The notes under the pieces: generated by a model
Databases searched by the model: none
Told to the model about the DNA's origin: nothing
Seen by the model: the letters and a program-made list of their open reading frames with translations, nothing else
Shown: positions 27,347 through 41,359 of the stretch, one piece after another
Layout: each line of letters opens with the position of its first letter
Numbering within the stretch: position 1 is the first letter of the stretch
Assembly (NCBI GenBank): GCA_017404385.1
Contig: JAFRCK010000025.1
Location: forward strand, 1-41,794
From: Bacilli bacterium
Lineage (GTDB): Bacteria; Bacillota_I; Bacilli_A; RF39; UBA660
Length of the DNA stretch: 41,794 bases
Reading direction: 5' to 3'
Program-made: the position numbers and the translations under genes

Positions 27347-28240
27347 TTATATACCTCCTTTTTTATTTCTATGAGAATCCTGTCCTAAAACATGATATGA
27401 ATCCATTATTGTAAAAAATGCATTCTCATCTATTTCTTTAATCCCTTCTTTTGCTTTAAAATATTCAATAGTTGGGACAACTGCCATTATTACCTTCTGT
27501 TTGCTATCAGAATAACCACCATGTGCATCTAGTACTGTTACTCCTCTAGATAAGTTATTCATAATATAATCCTTAACTTCATCAACCTTTGATGTAACAA
27601 TAAAGAATGTTTTATTTTCAGATACTGATAACATAATTTTATCAGTTACAATATTAATGATATATATTATTATTAAAGCATATAGTAAAATTCTCCATCC
27701 AAATGTATATCCGCCAATTAAAACTATTATTCCATTAACAATCAAAAATGCATTACCAGTAGATATTTTTAGTTTTTTTGAAATGATATTTATAACTGTA
27801 TCAACTCCACCTGTAGTAAGTCCAGCACGTCCAATTAAACCTGTAGCAAATCCTATTAAAACAGAGCCACATATTACAATAAGCATCATATCATCCGTTG
27901 GAACTGGTAAACTAACATTCTTTGTTAACTCTACAAATAATGGAAATAATAAGGATCCAATTAATGAATTAAAAGCATATCTTTTTCCTAAAAATATATA
28001 CCCTAGAATAAATGCTATTATCGATATTGTCATTATAGTTATCGATGGATCTATATAATCTTTTATAATCATGGCAATACCACCAGACCCACCATATACT
28101 AAATTGTTAGGTACAAAAAATACATTATATGCAATCGAATATATCAATGAACCAATTATTAACAAAATATATCTTTTAACAATATTTTTATTTTCAATTT
28201 CATATATTATATCTCTTTTTGCCTTATCAATTATTTTCAT
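27347..28240 (-). CDS. YitT-family membrane protein (DUF161 + DUF2179)
   Basis: 297 aa. Five to six membrane segments in the first 200 residues, with NVFFVPNNLVYGGSGGIAMI and GRAGLTTGGVDTV, the marks of YitT/DUF161. The soluble tail (about 210-290) has the DUF2179 pattern, with ITSKVDEVKDYIMNNLSRGVT and DSYHVLGQ near the end. The function of the family is unknown. The ATG overlaps the prfB stop by 4 nt (28237-28240) and has a GGGAGGTAC site inside prfB. Confidence 0.9.
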   Translation of the reverse strand: MKIIDKAKRDIIYEIENKNIVKRYILLIIGSLIYSIAYNVFFVPNNLVYGGSGGIAMIIKDYIDPSITIMTISIIAFILGYIFLGKRYAFNSLIGSLLFPLFVELTKNVSLPVPTDDMMLIVICGSVLIGFATGLIGRAGLTTGGVDTVINIISKKLKISTGNAFLIVNGIIVLIGGYTFGWRILLYALIIIYIINIVTDKIMLSVSENKTFFIVTSKVDEVKDYIMNNLSRGVTVLDAHGGYSDSKQKVIMAVVPTIEYFKAKEGIKEIDENAFFTIMDSYHVLGQDSHRNKKGGI

Positions 28241-29323
28241 TCTTTTGTACCTCCCTTTAAGTATTCTTCTATAAAATCATCAATATAACCATCCATTACT
28301 TTATATACATCACTTTTTTCATAGTTAGTTCTATGATCCTTAACCATTGAATAAGGATGCATCACATAACTTCTAATTTGTGAACCAAAATTAATATCAC
28401 TTTGATTATTTAATTGATTTTCTTTTTCTTTTCTTTTATTCTCTTCTTCTAAAGCAAATAACTTTGCTTTTAATACTTTCATAGCTAGTTCTTTATTCTT
28501 TAACTGACTTCTTTCATTTTGACATGTAACTATTATTCCAGTTGGTAAATGAGTAATACGAACAGCTGAATCTGTTGTATTAACTCCCTGGCCACCTGCT
28601 CCTGTGGAACGATATACATCAATTCTTAAATCTTGTTCTTTAATATCGATAGTAACGGTATCATCTATTTCAGGGGTTACTTCAACAGAAGCAAATGAAG
28701 TGTGTCTTCTTTTATTAGAATCAAATGGTGAAATTCTAACAAGTCTATGAACTCCTCTTTCACATTTAAGATAACCATAAGCATTATTTCCTTTAACTAA
28801 TACTGTAACTCTTTTAATACCAGCTTCTTCACCATCTAGCTGATCAATAATTTCATACTTATAATTATTTCTTTCACACCATCTTTCATACATTCTAAGA
28901 AGCATACTTACCCAATCACAACTTTCTGTTCCACCTGCACCTGAATGTAGTTCCATGATAGCATTATTCTTATCATACTTACCTGATAACTTCGTTTCTA
29001 ACTCTAATTTAGTTATTCTTAAATCCAAATCCTGAATTTCATTTTGAATTGCTTCTAGATAAGATTCATCCAAATCTATCAATTCTTTATATGATAGTAA
29101 TTCTTGTTTAATATTAAATATATTTTCTATTGTTCTTTTTTTATCGCCTAATTCTTTTAAAATTTCTGAAGAATTATCTTTATTCCAAAAACTTGGATCT
29201 AATGTTTCTTTTTCTAATGATTCTACTTCTTTTTGTTTCAAATCAATGTCAAAGTAACCTCCAAATTAAATCAACTTTATCTAACAATCCATCTATTTTT
29301 ATTTTTACTTCCTTATTATCCAT
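28237..29323 (-). CDS. prfB: Peptide chain release factor 2 (programmed +1 frameshift)
   Basis: The start is ATG 29323 with a GGTGA site. After 24 codons the frame meets TGA at 29249-29251 directly after CTT. GGAGG (29258-29262) lies 3 nt before the CTT, and a +1 shift leads into GAC and the long frame, giving 361 aa. Residues 198-200 are SPF, which reads UGA and UAA, and 243-245 are GGQ, which triggers peptide release. The presence of RF2, and its control by its own UGA, show that UGA is a stop in this organism. The gene begins the prfB-yitT-ftsEX-M23 operon. Confidence 0.97.
29249..29262 (-). promoter_or_regulatory. RF2 programmed frameshift site
   Basis: GGAGG, 3-nt spacer, CTT TGA C: the canonical slippery arrangement with an internal ribosome-like site at the short spacing that pushes the +1 shift. 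Confidence 0.95.
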
Positions 29324-31554: not shown

Positions 31555-32061
31555 TTATTTTTCTTCGTAAATTGGTTTTCCAGTTTTTGGATCGTAACCA
31601 GTTACTTTAGCATAAATTGGTTTTCCAGTTTTTGGATCATAACCTGAAACTGGAGCTCCACTAGTGAATGGAGTATCTGAAACGAAATTCCAAAGAACTG
31701 ATAAAGTTCCCATTCCTAATGCAGCGAATAAACCTAACCAAATTCCAACGTATATATTATCAATATATCCGAAGAACATTGTTAAGTATGAAAGTACTAC
31801 AAATCCAGTAGCATAGTTAACATAACTCATCCATTTATCTTTAAATATGTTGAACATATTTAATAAATAGCAAGTGATTATTCCAATATAGCAGAATAAT
31901 AAAACAATTGCTGTAGATCTCATTCCATCAGCCCAAAGATTACTACTTGATGAATAATATGATGAACTGAATTTAATATGTGGAATGAATGAATTGATAA
32001 ATAAGAATAATGCTAAAGAACCAATTATAATACTAAATACTTTTCTTTTGCTAAGTTTCAT
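31555..32061 (-). CDS. Four-TM protein with tandem GYDPKTGKPIY tail
   Basis: 168 aa. Four hydrophobic segments (about residues 8-26, 48-68, 80-100 and 105-128) are followed by a soluble tail holding the motif GYDPKTGKPIY twice in tandem, separated by AKVT. The tail motif occurs in Firmicutes membrane proteins of unknown role; the membrane part has no family I recognise. ATG 32061 has an AGAGGTG site and a TATAGT box upstream. It forms a single-gene unit. Confidence 0.7.
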   Translation of the reverse strand: MKLSKRKVFSIIIGSLALFLFINSFIPHIKFSSSYYSSSSNLWADGMRSTAIVLLFCYIGIITCYLLNMFNIFKDKWMSYVNYATGFVVLSYLTMFFGYIDNIYVGIWLGLFAALGMGTLSVLWNFVSDTPFTSGAPVSGYDPKTGKPIYAKVTGYDPKTGKPIYEEK

Positions 32062-32230
32062 TGCTTACACCTCTCTTCTATATATAACTATATCATATTT
32101 TTTTTTAATTAAAAAGTACTTTTTAATTTTTTTTACAAAAATATTTATTAAAATATTAATAATACTATTTCTAGTTTATTAACAATAATCATTACATATA
32201 TCTCTATATATTATTAATTTTTTTGTAAGC

Positions 32231-32293
32231 CTATTTAGAACAACATTGCTTGCAGTTATTACCACTGCCACATGGGCTGAGTGTTACTATTTT
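32231..32293 (-). pseudogene. SEC-C-motif tail remnant
   Basis: The minus strand encodes SPCGSGNNCKQCCSK before a TAG (32231-32233), which matches the C-terminal SEC-C zinc motif (CxCGSGKKYKxCC). A TAG at 32294-32296 cuts the frame on the other side and there is no start codon. The likely source is the end of a lost SEC-C protein gene. A similar tail with its own start lies at 35200-35352. Confidence 0.65.
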
Positions 32294-32384
32294 CTAGCAA
32301 TAACTTGTGAATAAGTTGTAATTAATGCTAATAATTTGTAAGATATTCAACAAATTTTTAAAAAAATCACTCAGAAGTTATCTA

Positions 32385-32399
32385 AAAAGGTATCTAAAA
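32385..32399. repeat. 15-bp direct repeat, copy 1
   Basis: AAAAGGTATCTAAAA, identical to 35095-35109 and in the same orientation. The two copies bracket the 155-aa gene and the zinc-ribbon nuclease gene. A shorter partial copy, TTATCTAAAAA, stands just beside it (32378-32388). Confidence 0.7.
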
Positions 32400-32438
32400 T
32401 ACTTTTTTAATGGTTTTTCAATATTTTTTAGTAAGTTC

Positions 32439-32906
32439 TTAAAATCTTTCAATACCATTTTTTATTATTTTATAAACTTTATTAATGCTTGATTGTAGAT
32501 CTTTATTTAATAATTTTTCATTGTAACAATCATATTGATTTTTAAACTTATTATTATCTAATGGTAATGTATTCCACCATATTTTAAAGGCTGAAGGATA
32601 TAAACTATTGGAAGGAAAAAGATTATCAGATGGATATAACGCTAATGTTGAAACTGAATAATCAAACAATGAATGACTATGTTTTTTTATATTATTGGCA
32701 TATTTAATTGCACTAATTAACGAACAATCATAATCTGAAATATTTGTGTATTTTAAACATACTTCAAATTGACCCAATATATCATTAAGTTGTTCCTTTA
32801 GCAATAATTCGTCAACATTATTTTTTCTTTCAAATTCGTCTATAATATTATTAAATTTTTTAATTTTTCTATCTAATATAATTATTTCATCGTCTATCAT
32901 TTTCAT
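32439..32906 (-). CDS. 155-aa protein of unknown function
   Basis: ATG 32906 after AAGGAA. The N-terminal half (about 1-75) is charged and helical, perhaps coiled; the middle holds an unusual run of YPS/FPS motifs (LYPSDNLFPSNSLYPS, about residues 90-105) like those in phage tail proteins; the end is basic. It starts 14 nt after the zinc-ribbon nuclease gene and is probably cotranscribed with it. No family recognised. Confidence 0.55.
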   Translation of the reverse strand: MKMIDDEIIILDRKIKKFNNIIDEFERKNNVDELLLKEQLNDILGQFEVCLKYTNISDYDCSLISAIKYANNIKKHSHSLFDYSVSTLALYPSDNLFPSNSLYPSAFKIWWNTLPLDNNKFKNQYDCYNEKLLNKDLQSSINKVYKIIKNGIERF

Positions 32907-32920
32907 GGTTTTTTCCTTAA

Positions 32921-35026
32921 TTAATTCTTTTGCTTACATTTTTTGCATTTTTGATACCCTTGTGTTCTTGTATTTATTACAGCTTGCCATTCGTGCCCTT
33001 TTGAACATTTCCACCATACTTTTTTATTTGACCCTGCTTTAACTTCTATCGGTTTTAAATGTCCATTTTTTTCATAATTCCATTCTTTTGCGATTTCAGG
33101 ATGAGTAGTTACTAAATCGTTAAATCCTGACCAAACTTTACGTCCACTACAATAAGGGCAATAAGGTCTAAGCACAAAATCTCCAGCTTTAGATATCCAT
33201 GTATGACCTTGTGAACATTTTAAATATATCTTTTTTTCACTAGCATGAGATATTTGCTCTGGCCTGATTATTCCATTTTTTTCATAATCCCAATACTCTT
33301 CAATATTTGGACAATAGTTAGCAAGTGAATTCTTTTTTTCTGATAAATTCATTAGTTCTAATATTTTTACTCTATCTCTATCAACATCTACATCTGGTTT
33401 TATTTTTAAACCAAACTTTTTGTTTAAATAATTAAATATAAATAAAATCGCATTATTTAATTCTTCCATATTATATGATGTTATATATGTTTTTATAGAA
33501 GTACTATCATATTCATAACAGCCATATTCTCTTACTCTTAATAATTCTATCCCATTTTTATAACAAACTTTATCTTTTTCTATATCTCTATTATAATCTT
33601 TATGCCAAGCTTGACCATCATATTCAATTCCAAAATTATACTTTGGCAAGAATATATCTATTTCTTTTCTACCAATAATAGGATTATGATAACTATCTTC
33701 TACTTCACCTATATATTGCTTCATATAATAGAAAATTGCTCTTTCAGGGAATGATGTATGATTTTCAATATTACATTGTGGACAATCAGTGCCTCTTTTT
33801 CTTCCTAATACAGTAGTTTTATAACTATGACCTTTTGGACAAATAAACCAATATTTTTTAATATTACTCCCAGCCATTACCTCATCGGGCTTTTCTTTGT
33901 TTCTTTCATAATCCCATTCTTTTGCTATTTCAGGGTGTGTAGTTGCTAAATCATTTATTCCTTTAACAAGAATATTATGACTACAAATTCCACAACCTGA
34001 ACCTTTCATAACTCTACGAGAAGGACTTGATTTATATGAATGACCATTAGGACATTTCCACCAAGTATCTCTATCGCTACCAGCAGTTACATCTTTCATT
34101 GTAAATTTATTTTTATCAGTATCAAATTCGGTTATTACATCTTCTAAATGATTATTGATACAATATGTGTACAAATCATTATATCCTACTAATACTCTCT
34201 TATTGGAACAATATGGACAATTTTGCCCCATGTTTCTTTCTTTTGCAGACATTATCCACTCATGGCCATATTGACATTTCCAATGTACTTTTTTATGGCT
34301 GCCTGCTGTTATATCAGTTGGTTTTAAATTACCATTTTTCTTATAATCCCATTCCTTTGTCAAATTGGAATTAGTTGTTGCCAAGTCATTATAACCAACC
34401 AATACTTTTTTACCATCACAATACGGGCAGCCAACACCTTTTTTTCGATTAAATGCAAGCGACTGATATGAATGACCTTTATTACAAATCCACCAAATCA
34501 TTTTTTCAGCACCAGCAGTTATCTCTTTAGGCGAAATTGTATTTTTATTATAGTCCCATTCTGGTAATAATTCTGGATTAGTAGTTGCTAAATCATTATA
34601 TCCGATTAATACTCTTTGATTAGAGCAATATGGACAATTTAATCCACTATTTCTATCTCCTATGGACTTTTCCCATTCATGGCCATTTGAACACTTCCAC
34701 CATACTTTTTTATGCGAGCCAGGTAGCACATCTGAAGGTTTTAAATCTCCATTTTTTTCATAGCACCATTCTTTTGCCAATTGTGGGTTTACTGTCGCTA
34801 AATCATTATAACCTGCTAAGGCTTTAAGATTATTACAATAAGGACACCCATGGCCTTTACTTCTACTACTAACTACCGCTTTCCATTCATGACCATTTTT
34901 ACATTTCCACCAAATTTTTTTACTAGAAAACGGTTTCAAATTATCAAGGTCAACATCTTTGTTTTTTTCAAAATAATATTCTTTCATTAGTTCTTTATTA
35001 TCTTTTAATAAATTACTCAAGTTCAT
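32921..35026 (-). CDS. Eight-zinc-ribbon protein with embedded Vsr/DUF559-like nuclease
   Basis: 701 aa from ATG 35026; ATG 35035 is possible but lies at the predicted mRNA start. Six copies of a roughly 70-residue unit (EWDY.KN, WWKC.NGH.W, CPYC, GYNDLATT; the DUF4379 zinc-ribbon type) precede a nuclease-like domain at about residues 425-530. That domain has SFPERAI, then EIDIFLPKYNFGIEYDGQAWH, the Glu/Asp pattern of PD-(D/E)xK Vsr and DUF559 enzymes. Two more ribbons follow. The ribbons probably bind nucleic acid. The 155-aa gene lies just downstream. A direct repeat brackets the pair, and the gene stands next to a helicase, so a mobile or defence role is possible. Confidence 0.82.
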   Translation of the reverse strand: MNLSNLLKDNKELMKEYYFEKNKDVDLDNLKPFSSKKIWWKCKNGHEWKAVVSSRSKGHGCPYCNNLKALAGYNDLATVNPQLAKEWCYEKNGDLKPSDVLPGSHKKVWWKCSNGHEWEKSIGDRNSGLNCPYCSNQRVLIGYNDLATTNPELLPEWDYNKNTISPKEITAGAEKMIWWICNKGHSYQSLAFNRKKGVGCPYCDGKKVLVGYNDLATTNSNLTKEWDYKKNGNLKPTDITAGSHKKVHWKCQYGHEWIMSAKERNMGQNCPYCSNKRVLVGYNDLYTYCINNHLEDVITEFDTDKNKFTMKDVTAGSDRDTWWKCPNGHSYKSSPSRRVMKGSGCGICSHNILVKGINDLATTHPEIAKEWDYERNKEKPDEVMAGSNIKKYWFICPKGHSYKTTVLGRKRGTDCPQCNIENHTSFPERAIFYYMKQYIGEVEDSYHNPIIGRKEIDIFLPKYNFGIEYDGQAWHKDYNRDIEKDKVCYKNGIELLRVREYGCYEYDSTSIKTYITSYNMEELNNAILFIFNYLNKKFGLKIKPDVDVDRDRVKILELMNLSEKKNSLANYCPNIEEYWDYEKNGIIRPEQISHASEKKIYLKCSQGHTWISKAGDFVLRPYCPYCSGRKVWSGFNDLVTTHPEIAKEWNYEKNGHLKPIEVKAGSNKKVWWKCSKGHEWQAVINTRTQGYQKCKKCKQKN

Positions 35027-35039
35027 CACTTCCATTATT

Positions 35040-35048
35040 ATTATAACA
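35040..35048 (-). promoter_or_regulatory. Extended -10 box of the zinc-ribbon nuclease gene
   Basis: TGTTATAAT ending 13 nt before ATG 35026 and only 4 nt before ATG 35035. The mRNA should start near 35033, right at GGAAGTG, so the later ATG is the better start. Confidence 0.6.
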
Positions 35049-35094
35049 TATTAAAGATTTTTCTCGTGATGATTACTACTAAAAAACTACCGTG

Positions 35095-35119
35095 AAAAGG
35101 TATCTAAAAGGTATCTAAA
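35095..35119. repeat. 15-bp direct repeat, copy 2 (doubled)
   Basis: AAAAGGTATCTAAAA at 35095-35109 matches 32385-32399 exactly. A second unit, AAAAGGTATCTAAA (35106-35119), follows directly with an 11-bp step. Confidence 0.7.
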
Positions 35120-35199
35120 GTGAAATTTTAGTAATTTTTCGCAATTTTTTAGCAAAGAAAAAACTCACGTTTTCCCTTATTTTATGCGGGTTTGCGAGT

Positions 35200-35352
35200 T
35201 TATTTACCATGGCACTGCTTATATTTCTTGCCCGATCCACATGCGGGCCAAATTAGTATATTATCCATACTTATAATATTATGAGTATTTCCTTTATTTT
35301 CAAGGGTTTGTGGACAGGTAACATTTTGTATTTTAAGTACTATTTTTGTCAT
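35200..35352 (-). CDS. 50-aa SEC-C-tail frame, probably a gene remnant
   Basis: From ATG 35352 the frame ends in WPACGSGKKYKQCHGK, a full SEC-C zinc motif (the last Cys-Cys reads Cys-His). A TAA stands in frame just before the ATG and there is no ribosome site, so this is more likely the end of a decayed SEC-C protein gene than a live one. SEC-C tails bind zinc and often join to nuclease, helicase or SecA-type proteins. The C-terminal motif is far better kept than in the remnant at 32231. Confidence 0.45.
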   Translation of the reverse strand: MTKIVLKIQNVTCPQTLENKGNTHNIISMDNILIWPACGSGKKYKQCHGK

Positions 35353-35377
35353 TTTTTATATAAAATATTCATCTAAT

Positions 35378-35394
35378 GTGCACAAAATGTGCAC
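35378..35394. repeat. Two GTGCAC palindromes, one helical turn apart
   Basis: GTGCAC at 35378-35383 and 35389-35394, embedded in two direct copies of ATGTGCACAAA with an 11-bp step. It lies between the helicase stop and the SEC-C tail. It could be a dimer-binding operator or a recombination core. Confidence 0.45.
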
Positions 35395-35468
35395 AAATTT
35401 CTAGCATATCCTATATTTTCTTTGTCAACTAAATTATATAACATATAGTTTAATTAATCAATTTATCA

Positions 35469-38400
35469 TTATAGTTTCATTAATCCAAATATTACCTTAT
35501 AGTCTTCCTCTTTCAGTTTATCTTTTAATACTGTAGTTCTACCAAAATCTGCTTCGTTTACATTTATTATTCTTGCTTCTTTTAATGCACTAAACACTGA
35601 ATAGAATTTACTTTTATCTTCAGCACTTAAGAATCCAAACCTTGGATTATTATACATTTTAAAATTATCTATCATTTTTGTATGTTCACCAGATAATAAT
35701 GAAAATAGCATTTTTGGACCTAAAGATAATTTTAAATCTTTATATTTATCTATTACTTCTAGGATTACATTAACCAATTCTATTAATCTATGGCCACATA
35801 TAAATACATTATGAATATCTATATCTTCATCACAAAATCTAATACTTAATTCTTCTTTATCTTGCGTATAATTATGAGGCATCATAATAGTATTACATCC
35901 TGTACCATCTGCTTTATAATTTGTACATCCTAATACTCTTTGCTCAGAATTGTCTTTATTCTTACGTTTTTTTACCACTAGATATCCATCTTCACAATTA
36001 GGACATTTTGAAATTGACATCTTACCACCTAATAAGTCGTTTGTTACAAAGCCACATATTTCTGGATCATTAGAACATACCCATAGCTTTTTAGCTGCAG
36101 TAAAATGCTTATTTTCTCTTCTTTGTAAGGGATAATCACAGCATGGACATTTAATCATATTATTCAAATTTTCTACTGGATCTAATTCTTCTCCATCTAA
36201 AATAACATTTTTAAACTTATCCTTTATTTCTAGGATAAATTTAGATGGTCTATGTATTGGAGTTATTATAAATACTCTATTTTTTGTTCTTGTCAAAGCA
36301 ACGTAGAATAGTCTTCTCTCCTCAGCATATTCAATATCCTCGGTATCTTTTATTACTAATTTCATGACAGGATCATCAACAATTTTTGATGGGAATCCTA
36401 ATATAGCATCTTTTCCATTAATAATAATTACATTGTCATACCCCAATCCCTTAGATGAATGTGCAGTTAAATATGTTATTTTCAGATCTGGATATTTTAC
36501 TGATTTAATGATTCCGTTATTAAATGAAAAGTATTTTGATTGATTACCCAATTGGAATCCTTCGAATCCATATCTTCCTACCAAAAGTACACTTCCATCT
36601 TTTCCATTTGTCTTAACAATCATATCTAAAGATTTTTCAATAGCTTGACACATTCTATCAATAGGTTTATCTGTATCTTCCTTATCATATGTATCTTTAT
36701 ATGACATTAATAACACTGGATCACTAATTGATTTATTGGATTTTAATTCCTTCTTAATTTGTTCATTGTTTGCCATTACAAATCCACCGGCAATATCTAT
36801 TAATTCTTGTGAGTTTCTATATGTTTTCGTTATCTTCAAAACATTTGCATATCCCATCATTTCTTCAAATTTAGTAAATAACTCTACTTTAGCTCCACTA
36901 AATCTAAATATTGATTGCCAATCATCACCAACTGCAATAATTTTTGCATTTGAACATTTAGACAATCTTTCACATAAATCAAACCTTTGTAGTGAAATAT
37001 CTTGATATTCATCCACAAAAATATAATCATAAGGAAGTTTTTCTCCACTTTCTATTTTATTTTCAAGTATATTTGAAGCATTGTTAATCATATCTTCAAA
37101 ATCAATACTATTTGTATTCTTTAATTCAGTCATATATGCTAAATAACACTGATAACAAATATTTATAAATAACTTTGTTCTTTCATCTTTTAATGATACT
37201 TTCCATTCATCAAATTTAGACGGTGTAAAATTGTTAGTTTTAAATCTAGAAATAAATACACATACTAACTGAATAAATTTATTAAAATATTTGTCTTCAA
37301 TATTTTGAATAATTGCTTTATATACTTCTTTACTATTTTTAAATTCAAATGAAATACCGGCTTTTTGAAGTTCTTCTTTTAAATGTGTTATTGTGTCTCT
37401 TCCATCTTTATATTTGGAAAAAGTATATATTAATTTTGTTCCATGCTGTTTATGAAGCAATATTTTATCGTTAACGTGTTTTTTATACGTTTCAAGTTCT
37501 TCTTCACTAAATCTAGGATTCTTACCATCTTCAGAAATACCAAAGTGCTCTAAGTATATTTCTTTATCAAATTGTTTAATTAAAAAATCAGGACAATATG
37601 GTTTAATAGTATCTTTGAATCCATATTTGTAAATTGGCTCATAATCATAATCAATTCCATTAATAAATAAAAAATTTGCTATCCTACACTCTTCTGCGCT
37701 TCTAACTTTTTCATCTTTTATTGTTCTTCTATTCGTTTCTTGTTTCTTTTTAAAATCTTCTATTGTTTTAGCTATATCCGATCTCATTGTTGAGCAATCA
37801 TTCTTGTTTAATTCATTAATTAATAAGGCGAGATTATCTTCTCCTTGCGGAGCTTGCAAATAACTTGCGAAAAATAATAGTATTTTTTTGACAAATTCTT
37901 CATCATTAGCATTTTCAAGTAAAAACTTCTTTATTGAAGTAAACATAACATCTCCTGTGGCAATATTATGTTTTTCATCTTCAGAGCCTTTAATTATTGT
38001 ATTAGCTATTGAATGAAATGTAGAAATAACTACAGGTAACCCTAATTTTTTACATCTATCTTGTAACTCCTTTGTTGCTTTTCTAGTAAAAGATATAATA
38101 AGTATCTTATTAGGATCTATATGCTTTTTGTCTATTAAGTATTTAACTTTTGCCTCGATAGTTGTAGTCTTTCCTGCTCCTGCCCCTGCAATAACTAAAG
38201 TATAATCTTCATCAGATAAAACTACTTTTCTTTGCTCTTCATCTAATTTAATATTTGGATCATCTTTTAATAAAATTTCATCTAAGTATTGTTTGTCAGA
38301 CTGCATATGTCTTAAAACAAATGTATTATTATGATTTTCGATTAATACTTTTGTGTTGGTATAAAAATCTATTAAATCTTTTAATTTTGGATAATCTGTT

Positions 38401-38609
38401 CTATTATTTTTACACCAAGACTGCAAAACAGCCTCATTATCCATCATTAATAATTTTTCATATATTTCTTTATTGGCATCATAAAAATGAATATAATCTT
38501 TTCTTGAAATATAATCATCGCTTGATAATAATAACCCAATATTATTCTTATATTCTTCTAATACCTTATACTCAATTGATTCATTTGTATTCTTATTAAA
38601 AAATAACAT
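35469..38609 (-). CDS. UvrD/REP-type helicase with inserted nuclease-like domain and zinc ribbons
   Basis: 1046 aa from ATG 38609 (AGGTG site); a GTG at 38618 is the alternative. Helicase motifs appear in order: Walker A GAGAGKTT (about 142-149), DEYQDIS, GDDWQSIFRFSG, TYRNSQEL, TAHSSKGLGYDNV, and EERRLFYVALTRTK. Between motif Ia and motif II lies an insert with EECRIANFLFINGIDYDYEP and PDFLIKQFDKEIYLEHFG, a PD-(D/E)xK-like pattern seen in helicase IV-like proteins. The C-terminal third has two Cys4 clusters (CPCC...CSN...C and CPNC...CTN...C) of the topoisomerase zinc-ribbon type. It would be a 3'-5' DNA motor for repair or defence. A single-gene unit with its own promoter. Confidence 0.9.
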   Translation of the reverse strand: MLFFNKNTNESIEYKVLEEYKNNIGLLLSSDDYISRKDYIHFYDANKEIYEKLLMMDNEAVLQSWCKNNRTDYPKLKDLIDFYTNTKVLIENHNNTFVLRHMQSDKQYLDEILLKDDPNIKLDEEQRKVVLSDEDYTLVIAGAGAGKTTTIEAKVKYLIDKKHIDPNKILIISFTRKATKELQDRCKKLGLPVVISTFHSIANTIIKGSEDEKHNIATGDVMFTSIKKFLLENANDEEFVKKILLFFASYLQAPQGEDNLALLINELNKNDCSTMRSDIAKTIEDFKKKQETNRRTIKDEKVRSAEECRIANFLFINGIDYDYEPIYKYGFKDTIKPYCPDFLIKQFDKEIYLEHFGISEDGKNPRFSEEELETYKKHVNDKILLHKQHGTKLIYTFSKYKDGRDTITHLKEELQKAGISFEFKNSKEVYKAIIQNIEDKYFNKFIQLVCVFISRFKTNNFTPSKFDEWKVSLKDERTKLFINICYQCYLAYMTELKNTNSIDFEDMINNASNILENKIESGEKLPYDYIFVDEYQDISLQRFDLCERLSKCSNAKIIAVGDDWQSIFRFSGAKVELFTKFEEMMGYANVLKITKTYRNSQELIDIAGGFVMANNEQIKKELKSNKSISDPVLLMSYKDTYDKEDTDKPIDRMCQAIEKSLDMIVKTNGKDGSVLLVGRYGFEGFQLGNQSKYFSFNNGIIKSVKYPDLKITYLTAHSSKGLGYDNVIIINGKDAILGFPSKIVDDPVMKLVIKDTEDIEYAEERRLFYVALTRTKNRVFIITPIHRPSKFILEIKDKFKNVILDGEELDPVENLNNMIKCPCCDYPLQRRENKHFTAAKKLWVCSNDPEICGFVTNDLLGGKMSISKCPNCEDGYLVVKKRKNKDNSEQRVLGCTNYKADGTGCNTIMMPHNYTQDKEELSIRFCDEDIDIHNVFICGHRLIELVNVILEVIDKYKDLKLSLGPKMLFSLLSGEHTKMIDNFKMYNNPRFGFLSAEDKSKFYSVFSALKEARIINVNEADFGRTTVLKDKLKEEDYKVIFGLMKL

Positions 38610-38627
38610 AACCAACACCTATACTTA

Positions 38628-40408: not shown

Positions 40409-41359
40409 CTATTTTTTCAATATTTTTCCAACTTCTTCTTTATGTTTTGGAAGTAATCCTTCTTCTTCAGGATTATCTGAATAATAAATAGTTTCAACTA
40501 AATGGTCTCTTACTCTGTCTAAATCAGACTTTTCCCAATGCATTGCTTTGGTATCGTCATCATCTATAACACAATAATGTTCTATTTCTGGATGCATTTC
40601 TAAGTATTTTAGAATTTCTAAATCTTTCCACATTGATATATAAGAGTTTTCTCCAGTTTTGATTGTAACATTAGGAGTTCTTCCTATACATTCTATACCA
40701 TATTTTTTAAAGAATCGAAATATATCATTTACCCAAGATCCTTCTCCGACCTCTAATGTTTCTTCATCAATTGCATCTTTTGCGGATGCTTCAATTACAA
40801 CCTTACAATTATATTCTTTACAAATATCTGCAAGTATTTTGATTCTTCTTTCAATATCTTCCATTGATTTATAATGAACTGTATCTAACACTCCATCAAA
40901 ATCTAGAAATATTACATTTGTCTTTAGTCTCTCTTTTTTATAAATTGTTTCTAAATTATCTTTATAATCTTCATATAGATAATCTTCAAAGTCAATATAA
41001 TCTATTACTTTATCTATCCTTTGAAGATAACTAGAATCTATTTGGCTACTTGGAATTGCATATTCTCCTACTTGTTCTTCTTTTTTCATAAAGACTCTAT
41101 CTAAATATCTTCCACTTCCTACATATTCAGCAAGTATTTCATCTGGAATATCATATGTACAAATATAATGATCTTTCGTAACATTCAGATAGAAAATACT
41201 TCCATAATCTTTATAAAAATGAAGATACTTTATATTCGGTTTATATTCATGATTATTTAATTTAGAATCATTTGTACATGTTCTACCAATATCACTAAAA
41301 GGAATACCATTTATAATTTTGTCTAATTCTTCTTTTTTACAAATTCGATATACAACCAT
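40409..41359 (-). CDS. ART-like N-terminal domain fused to HAD phosphatase domain
   Basis: 316 aa. Residues 1-110 (MVVYRICKKEELDKI start, Arg5, KYLHFYK, CTYDIP, EYAIPSSQ with Glu99) resemble a family of small proteins that I believe has an ADP-ribosyltransferase-like fold. Residues 147-270 form a HAD domain: DFDGVLDT (Asp153 and Asp155, the nucleophile and acid-base pair), and CVIDDDD (263-269) as motif IV, of the HAD type found in RNA-repair and polymorphic conflict proteins. The HAD part could act on a phosphorylated or ADP-ribosylated target or on RNA ends. ATG 41359 has a GGAG site and TATAAT at 41386-41391. The function is inference. Confidence 0.6.
   Translation of the reverse strand: MVVYRICKKEELDKIINGIPFSDIGRTCTNDSKLNNHEYKPNIKYLHFYKDYGSIFYLNVTKDHYICTYDIPDEILAEYVGSGRYLDRVFMKKEEQVGEYAIPSSQIDSSYLQRIDKVIDYIDFEDYLYEDYKDNLETIYKKERLKTNVIFLDFDGVLDTVHYKSMEDIERRIKILADICKEYNCKVVIEASAKDAIDEETLEVGEGSWVNDIFRFFKKYGIECIGRTPNVTIKTGENSYISMWKDLEILKYLEMHPEIEHYCVIDDDDTKAMHWEKSDLDRVRDHLVETIYYSDNPEEEGLLPKHKEEVGKILKK

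What the first reader, a model, noticed from the sequence alone, without database searches (positions are those of the whole stretch)
32921..35026. Eight zinc ribbons around a Vsr/DUF559-like nuclease
Six ribbons come before and two after a PD-(D/E)xK-like domain in one chain. Such an array could recognise long or structured DNA or RNA, with the nuclease cutting it. Together with the next gene (155 aa) it may form a two-gene system.
Basis: partly seen in the sequence, partly recalled or inferred. Interest (0 to 1): 0.7.

Follow-up and report, generated by a model that had tools for sequence, protein, structure and literature searches.

The report
Zinc-finger-array nuclease on mobile secA cassette
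A bacterial protein with eight zinc fingers around a DNA-cutting domain is real, and it travels as cargo of a precisely bounded 3-kb mobile cassette that inserts at the end of the essential gene secA, where related gut bacteria stack up strings of such cassettes, several carrying anti-phage genes.

Summary
In detail: on the minus strand, one ORF has eight DUF4379 treble-clef zinc units, six before and two after an EDxHD/Vsr/DUF559-type nuclease domain. Metal ligands are intact and catalytic residues are conserved in 64 homologues. The predicted nuclease fold matches homing endonuclease I-Bth0305I and Vsr; the units match trypanosome mitoribosome protein mt-SAF33.

The larger result is context. 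The gene and its 155-aa neighbour form a 2,972-bp cassette (window 32272-35243). It recurs at 96% identity in another MAG with unrelated flanks, and both ends fall on copies of the last 44 bp of secA. The homologous gene lies in integrase-less cassettes directly behind secA in seven other MAGs, and in mobilizable elements with integrase and relaxase. Related genomes carry up to eight such cassettes in tandem (integron-like), with cargo including a retron-type RT, type III restriction-modification and AbiE. Nucleases at secA are polyphyletic, so secA is probably not their own homing target. Inside 95%-identical mobile elements the nuclease gene is swapped for one about 45% identical.

Best reading: a mobile-element cargo nuclease that cuts invading DNA found by its finger array. 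The target is untested. The proposed two-gene system is not supported. New variant of a known kind.

The parts
32272..35243 (-). Mobile cassette (2,972 bp): nuclease gene plus 155-aa gene, bounded on both sides by copies of the secA 3' end
   Evidence: blastn to L084 (JAUNMV010000030.1): 96.3% over exactly 32272-35243, flanks unrelated; ends coincide with the secA-end copies
32921..35026 (-). DUF4379(x6)-nuclease-DUF4379(x2) protein, 701 aa from the probable start (704 aa from the upstream ATG at 35035)
33766..35026 (-). Six N-terminal DUF4379 treble-clef units (CxxGH at residues 45, 115, 184, 254, 328, 399)
33311..33766 (-). EDxHD/Vsr/DUF559-type nuclease domain (residues about 424-575; E431, D460, E471, D473, H478, K487)
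32924..33310 (-). Two C-terminal DUF4379 units (CxxGH at residues 607, 677)
32439..32906 (-). 155-aa gene of the same cassette, no known family
35200..35243 (-). secA 3'-end copy (att-like, ends ...CGSGKKYKQCHGK*) at the upstream end of the cassette
32231..32274 (-). secA 3'-end copy (att-like, degenerate) at the downstream end of the cassette
35097..35116 (-). Two direct AGATACCTT repeats just inside the upstream end (possible integrase arm sites)
32387..32395 (-). AGATACCTT repeat just inside the downstream end (possible integrase arm site)
35469..38618 (-). UvrD-family helicase, 1049 aa: the same gene is the last one of an integrase/relaxase element ending at a secA-end copy in G068 (L255), so here it is most likely the end of the neighbouring upstream element
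28237..29241 (-). prfB, host gene that marks the far side of the secA-prfB hotspot

Best explanation
The gene is cargo of a small mobile cassette and encodes a single-chain, zinc-finger-array-guided nuclease. SHOWN by sequence: the domain layout, conserved active site, predicted fold, and a cassette with precise ends at copies of the last 44 bp of secA. Also shown: the same nuclease family in integrase-less secA cassettes of other species and in integrase/relaxase elements, and swapping of the nuclease gene inside nearly identical elements. INFERRED: (1) cassettes are moved in trans by tyrosine recombinases of neighbouring elements that use the secA 3' end as attachment site; each insertion gives secA a new SEC-C tail and pushes the old tail to the far end of the cassette. 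(2) The treble-clef units, beads on a string in the model, read a long nucleic-acid target, most likely DNA. (3) The EDxHD/Vsr-type domain cuts there. (4) The benefit is exclusion of invading DNA (phages, rival elements), which would fit the rapid replacement of the recognition array and the company of defence genes in the same arrays.
For: Eight units and conserved catalytic residues; model pLDDT 88.9, nuclease fold nearest I-Bth0305I 3r3p (Z 9.6, rmsd 2.4, 94 of 98 residues), NGO0050 3hrl and Vsr 1cw0. Exact cassette ends in window and L084. All 7 genome-contig loci with the gene right behind secA have a second copy of their own secA end downstream, 6-12 mismatches in 44 bp against at least 16 in shuffles, with no integrase inside. 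Displaced copies have a sharp boundary: 0.05-0.14 bit per base at -6 to -2, 1.9 bits at CATGTGG. AGATACCTT repeats cluster at the ends (43 of 50; 6.4 expected). Integrase, Mob_Pre and HTH genes lie beside it in G024, G011, G004. In those elements Int 97.7-99.1% and Mob 97.2-99.0% aa identity, nuclease 44-47%. Recombinase/Mob gene within 300 bp: 6/66 nucleases vs 7/412 control genes, p 0.004; secA: 6/66 vs 6/412, p 0.003. Cargo of neighbouring cassettes: 154 PADLOC models hit vs 8 for as many control genes (redundant models), including Ec107-like retron RT, type III methyltransferase, AbiEii.
Against: No target, cleavage or phage-resistance data exist. PADLOC and NCBIfam have no model for the protein, and most of the 80 loci show no recombinase within reach. 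Phage relatives are annotated as homing endonucleases, a selfish and not a defensive role. The solved relatives of the finger unit sit in mitoribosomes and presumably bind rRNA. Transfer by integrase in trans is not demonstrated; the nearest genomes are MAGs with contig breaks at this locus.
Confidence: 0.5

Rival explanations
1. Homing endonuclease: the protein cuts the cassette-free secA 3' end and repair copies the cassette in, replacing the secA tail with a resistant version, as yeast WHO elements do at FBA1.
For: Closest fold is the catalytic domain of the EDxHD homing endonuclease I-Bth0305I; phage relatives are annotated as Hef-like/homing endonucleases; PMC12350094 calls CapR/DUF4379-like repeats plus an EDxHD/Vsr domain a large outgroup of homing endonucleases; WHO elements also join zinc fingers to a nuclease, sit behind the 3' end of a conserved gene and leave tandem gene-end fragments (PMC7282813).
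Against: Nucleases at secA are polyphyletic (at least 5 changes forced on the tree) and relatives sit in many other places; cassettes without any nuclease use the same site; copies begin at one fixed base and are only 44 bp long, whereas WHO fragments are about 400 bp; tyrosine-integrase elements use the same site.
Confidence: 0.2
2. Structured-RNA or ribonucleoprotein nuclease: the array binds RNA and the domain cuts RNA or an RNA-DNA hybrid, for example as a retron effector.
For: Solved DUF4379 relatives are trypanosome mitoribosome/assembly proteins mt-SAF33 and mS66; two loci have a retron-type RT 28 and 135 bp upstream (L111, L049/L090).
Against: The structural neighbours of the catalytic domain that are characterised (I-Bth0305I, Vsr, restriction enzymes) act on DNA; most loci, the window included, have no RT; no Rfam match in 32000-36000.
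Confidence: 0.12
3. Two-gene toxin-antitoxin-like or defence pair of the nuclease with the 155-aa protein.
For: 14-bp gap, same strand, moved together.
Against: The 155-aa gene occurs only in this cassette; other cassettes have different second genes.
Confidence: 0.06
4. Helper of the cassette's own movement or maintenance, for example cutting rival cassettes or empty sites to aid integration.
For: Present in integrase elements and in integrase-less cassettes; recombinase neighbours of two unrelated kinds.
Against: Many cassettes at the same site lack it; no direct evidence.
Confidence: 0.12

Closest known systems
DUF4379 / 'zinc-ribbon domain-containing protein' (Pfam PF14311)
   Same: All eight units score far above the Pfam cut-off; widespread in Bacillota, also plasmids, phages, and by fold giant viruses
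   Different: No function is recorded for the family; nothing found describes the internal nuclease or the cassette context
CapR/DUF4379-like + EDxHD/Vsr homing-endonuclease outgroup of phage introns (PMC12350094)
   Same: Repeated roughly 60-aa zinc units joined to an EDxHD/Vsr-related domain
   Different: There and in the viral hits here the nuclease is C-terminal; here it lies inside the array with about 2-12 units in all, free-standing, in cellular mobile cassettes
Hef-like homing endonucleases of Campylobacter and T4-type phages
   Same: tblastn matches over units and nuclease to records annotated as Hef/homing endonuclease; hef of phage U5 cleaves nrdB according to PMC2988022
   Different: 22-36% identity; phage intergenic genes beside their target, not secA cassettes
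I-Bth0305I and Vsr endonucleases
   Same: Catalytic-domain fold
   Different: No treble-clef array; 13-16% identity
Yeast WHO/HO elements (PMC7282813)
   Same: Zinc-finger-fused nuclease cargo behind the 3' end of a conserved gene with tandem gene-end fragments
   Different: Unrelated nuclease (LAGLIDADG), homology-driven, about 400-bp fragments, eukaryote
Integrons, CIME/IME accretion arrays, tycheposons
   Same: Same-orientation cargo cassettes separated by attachment-site copies, recombinase supplied elsewhere
   Different: Attachment site is the SEC-C-coding end of secA; integrases are Phage_int_SAM_3-type; no IntI or attC identified. Comparison partly from general knowledge

Membership tests
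DUF4379 (PF14311) | Profile match above the curated cut-off with CxxGH...CxxC ligands | tested here: met
   443 bits against cut-off 24.5, 8 stretches; ligands in all units
EDxHD/Vsr nuclease superfamily | PD-(D/E)XK-like fold of Vsr/I-Bth0305I type | tested here: met
   3r3p Z 9.6 over 94 of 98 residues, 1cw0 Z 8.9, on a model with pLDDT mostly above 85 in this region
EDxHD/Vsr nuclease superfamily | E, D, H, D catalytic residues in order | tested here: inconclusive
   E431 and D460 invariant, H478 and D484 at least 90%; residue-by-residue match to 3r3p not done
Homing endonuclease | Cuts the element-free allele of its insertion site and is copied in | not testable with these tools
   needs biochemistry
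Homing endonuclease | Lineage tied to one target site | tested here: not met
   secA-linked nucleases are not one clade, at least 5 changes forced
CIME-type integrase-less mobile element | Flanked by attachment-site copies, no recombinase inside, found with and without | tested here: met
   G005 has secA without such copies
Integron | IntI integrase and attC recombination sites | tested here: inconclusive
   Integrases found match Phage_integrase plus Phage_int_SAM_3; no test with IntI or attC models was run
Known anti-phage defence system | Match to a described system | tested here: not met
   no PADLOC match for the nuclease or the 155-aa protein
Retron | Retron RT and ncRNA with the effector | tested here: not met
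   No RT in this cassette; Ec107-like and type VI-like RTs only beside two relatives

The most novel reading that the evidence does not exclude
The secA 3' end in these uncultured gut Bacilli anchors an integron-like gene-capture system: integrase-less one-to-four-gene cassettes, same orientation, each ending in a SEC-C-coding att copy, moved in trans by tyrosine recombinases and enriched in defence genes. The zinc-array nuclease is a recurrent cassette whose array is replaced module-wise to change its DNA target.
Probability: 0.4. Interest if true: 0.85.

Novelty: new variant of a known kind. Interest (0 to 1): 0.64.

Why it matters
It turns a database 'zinc-ribbon domain-containing protein' into a testable object: a modular, naturally reshuffled finger array around a nuclease, carried on elements whose near-identical backbones hold different arrays (a natural experiment for reading out specificity). 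It also points to a tandem cassette array at the end of an essential gene, for which no paper was found in the held library, with anti-phage genes among its cargo.

Tried and rejected
Two-gene system: rejected, the partner is not conserved. SecA-specific homing as the main reading: lowered by polyphyly, nuclease-free cassettes and fixed 44-bp boundaries. The small ORF with the SEC-C motif upstream of the gene is not a separate gene but an att copy. RNA element in the cassette: no Rfam match at gathering thresholds. Promoter and terminator scans are uninformative in this AT-rich DNA (27 found, 23.9 expected). UvrD helicase as partner: it belongs to the neighbouring element. Nuclease alignment A1 was too divergent to seed a scan. 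Literature: DUF4379 in three papers, PF14311 in none; Sandegren 2005 (SegH/Hef) not held. The serine-recombinase/nuclease single ORF in L116 was not pursued; it could be a chimera.

Full report
OBSERVATION. The ORF is on the minus strand, 32921-35035 (704 aa). Pfam gives eight DUF4379 units (E 5.2e-136). Their CxxGH motifs are at residues 45-399 (six) and 607-677 (two), each followed by C..C. Between them lies a nuclease domain that Pfam sees only weakly (MTES_1575, E 0.008). Alignments of 16 full-length and 64 partial homologues keep E431, D460, E471, D473 and K487 invariant, and H478, D484, R500 and E503 at 90% or more. AlphaFold2 models: pLDDT 88.9 for unit 6-nuclease-units 7/8 and 87.6 with pTM 0.39 for the whole chain, i.e. 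well-folded beads without a fixed mutual arrangement. Against the PDB, the nuclease is nearest I-Bth0305I (Z 9.6), NGO0050 (9.4) and Vsr (8.9). The units are nearest mt-SAF33 of the trypanosome mitoribosome (Z about 12; 7pua_Fd 1.3 A over 67 residues) (sequence). dN/dS is 0.12 against the 97%-identical copy.

CASSETTE. L084 (JAUNMV010000030.1, another Bacilli MAG) matches the window at 96.3% over exactly 32272-35243 and nowhere else around it. Both ends lie on copies of a 44-bp sequence, window 32231-32274 and 35200-35243. The sequence is the SEC-C-coding 3' end of secA; three shuffles of 311 kb gave no hit. In L084 the cassette interrupts a ToxN-like gene: the right-hand piece alone matches ToxN_toxin, E 7e-24.

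secA HOTSPOT. Among 80 genome-contig loci found with the nuclease profile, seven have the gene 169-281 bp behind secA on the same strand. All seven carry a second copy of their own secA end 2.4-4.0 kb further on, 6-12 mismatches against at least 16 in shuffles, without an integrase between. In G024 one contig holds secA (55317-57809), the nuclease (66185-68324) and prfB (from 74342). In G005 secA is followed by ordinary genes without such copies. Elements with tyrosine integrase, HTH and Mob_Pre relaxase genes start directly behind secA in G000 (this genome, contig C18), G008, G068, G127, G019 and others. In G068 such an element ends with a helicase whose first residues equal the window's 1049-aa helicase, followed by a secA-end copy. 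So the window probably reads: secA (C18) - element - helicase - att - [nuclease + 155 aa] - att - host genes - prfB. The C18-C9 link is inferred.

ARRAYS. A degenerate pattern for the secA end gave hits in 93 of 117 family genomes and none for the reversed control. G072 has eight copies in 14 kb and G091 eight in 18.5 kb, 1.1-4.1 kb apart, all on one strand behind secA. 93 of 97 ORFs in the examined intervals point the same way (two of these ORFs come from L262, a different SEC-C gene). In 51 copies classed as displaced (about three are really secA ends), information content jumps from 0.05-0.14 bit at -6 to -2 to 1.9 bits at CATGTGG, while true secA ends stay high upstream. Such a fixed boundary is expected of site-specific recombination, not of homologous recombination. 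AGATACCTT repeats lie near these copies (43 of 50, 6.4 expected), including both ends of the window cassette. The motif was noticed first in this region, so the p-value is optimistic. Cargo: 59 cassette genes hit 154 PADLOC models at 1e-10, 59 control genes 8 (several models per protein). Named hits are an Ec107-like retron RT, type III methyltransferase, AbiEii and PDC-S05. Ordinary genes (GNAT, Nudix, radical SAM, tRNA synthetase, HTH) are also there.

THE NUCLEASE AS CARGO. In G024, G011 and G004 the elements are 95-96% identical over 3.8-3.9 kb up to the first unit of the nuclease gene; G024 and G011 are again 85% identical behind its stop. Int is 97.7-99.1% and Mob 97.2-99.0% identical, but the nucleases only 44-47%, with arrays 3+4, 5+5 and 5+(contig end). 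So this gene is replaced inside a constant element. The tree of 88 nuclease domains places the window next to other secA cassettes, then to Ruminococcus genes beside serine recombinases. secA linkage needs 6 changes, at least 5 on starred branches. Immediate recombinase or Mob neighbours are commoner than for control genes of the same loci (6/66 vs 7/412, p 0.004), and so is secA (6/66 vs 6/412, p 0.003). Two loci have retron-type RTs just upstream.

INTERPRETATION. Shown: protein architecture, conserved active site, fold, cassette ends, recurrence at secA, cargo swapping. Inferred: movement in trans by tyrosine recombinase, target reading by the array, DNA as substrate, anti-invader benefit. 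The main rival is homing. Phage relatives are annotated as Hef/homing endonucleases, and PMC12350094 describes a related outgroup of EDxHD/Vsr homing endonucleases with CapR/DUF4379-like repeats. Yeast WHO elements show how a zinc-finger nuclease can build tandem gene-end fragments. Against homing to secA: polyphyly, nuclease-free cassettes at the same site, the short fixed boundary, and integrase elements on the same site.

NOVELTY. The domains and their combination are known at database level. The internal position of the nuclease, the variable array on both sides, the swapping and the secA cassette arrays were not found described in the held library, which lacks most subscription papers. 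I rate it a new variant of a known kind; the arrays, if confirmed, could be more.

Noticed in passing
L246 (G072:C27:21500-41499), L247-L248 (G091:C35:4000-31000): Tandem arrays of about eight cassettes behind secA separated by secA 3'-end copies, no integrase inside, with cargo such as a retron-type RT with an AAA gene, HD + RhuM, SLFN_AlbA + WYL, nucleotidyltransferase.
   Followed up: partly
L111:5742-9128; L049:6277-9305 (= L090): Retron-type reverse transcriptase (Ec107-like E 3.6e-114; type VI-like E 4.7e-55) 28 and 135 bp upstream of a DUF4379 nuclease, in L111 next to type IV restriction and Schlafen-type helicase genes: possible retron effector.
   Followed up: partly
L048, L051, L053: Integrative mobilizable elements 95-96% identical in backbone but with nuclease genes only 44-47% identical, break inside the first zinc unit.
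   Followed up: yes
L116:1134-5300: Serine recombinase and DUF4379 nuclease in one 1388-aa open reading frame; first half of unit 1 missing, so a fusion or an assembly chimera.
   Followed up: no
L097:5662-9314: GIY-YIG/NUMOD1 homing-endonuclease-like gene overlapping the start of a DUF4379 nuclease gene by a few bases.
   Followed up: no
L084:6546-9507: The same cassette inserted inside a ToxN-like type III toxin-antitoxin gene rather than behind secA: a secondary insertion site.
   Followed up: partly
L086:9564-10508: A DUF1848/radical-SAM gene matching PADLOC's RTasDUF1848 (DRT-associated) just behind the att copy that ends the nuclease cassette.
   Followed up: no
window 40409-41359: HAD_SAK_2 domain protein (Swiss Army Knife RNA repair) in the upstream accessory region, with an unassigned 342-aa gene and an XRE regulator next to it.
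   Followed up: no
G000:C18:77429-86458 (L074) and window right end: This genome's secA contig carries an integrase-HTH-excisionase-integrase-Mob_Pre element; it probably joins the right end of the window contig.
   Followed up: partly
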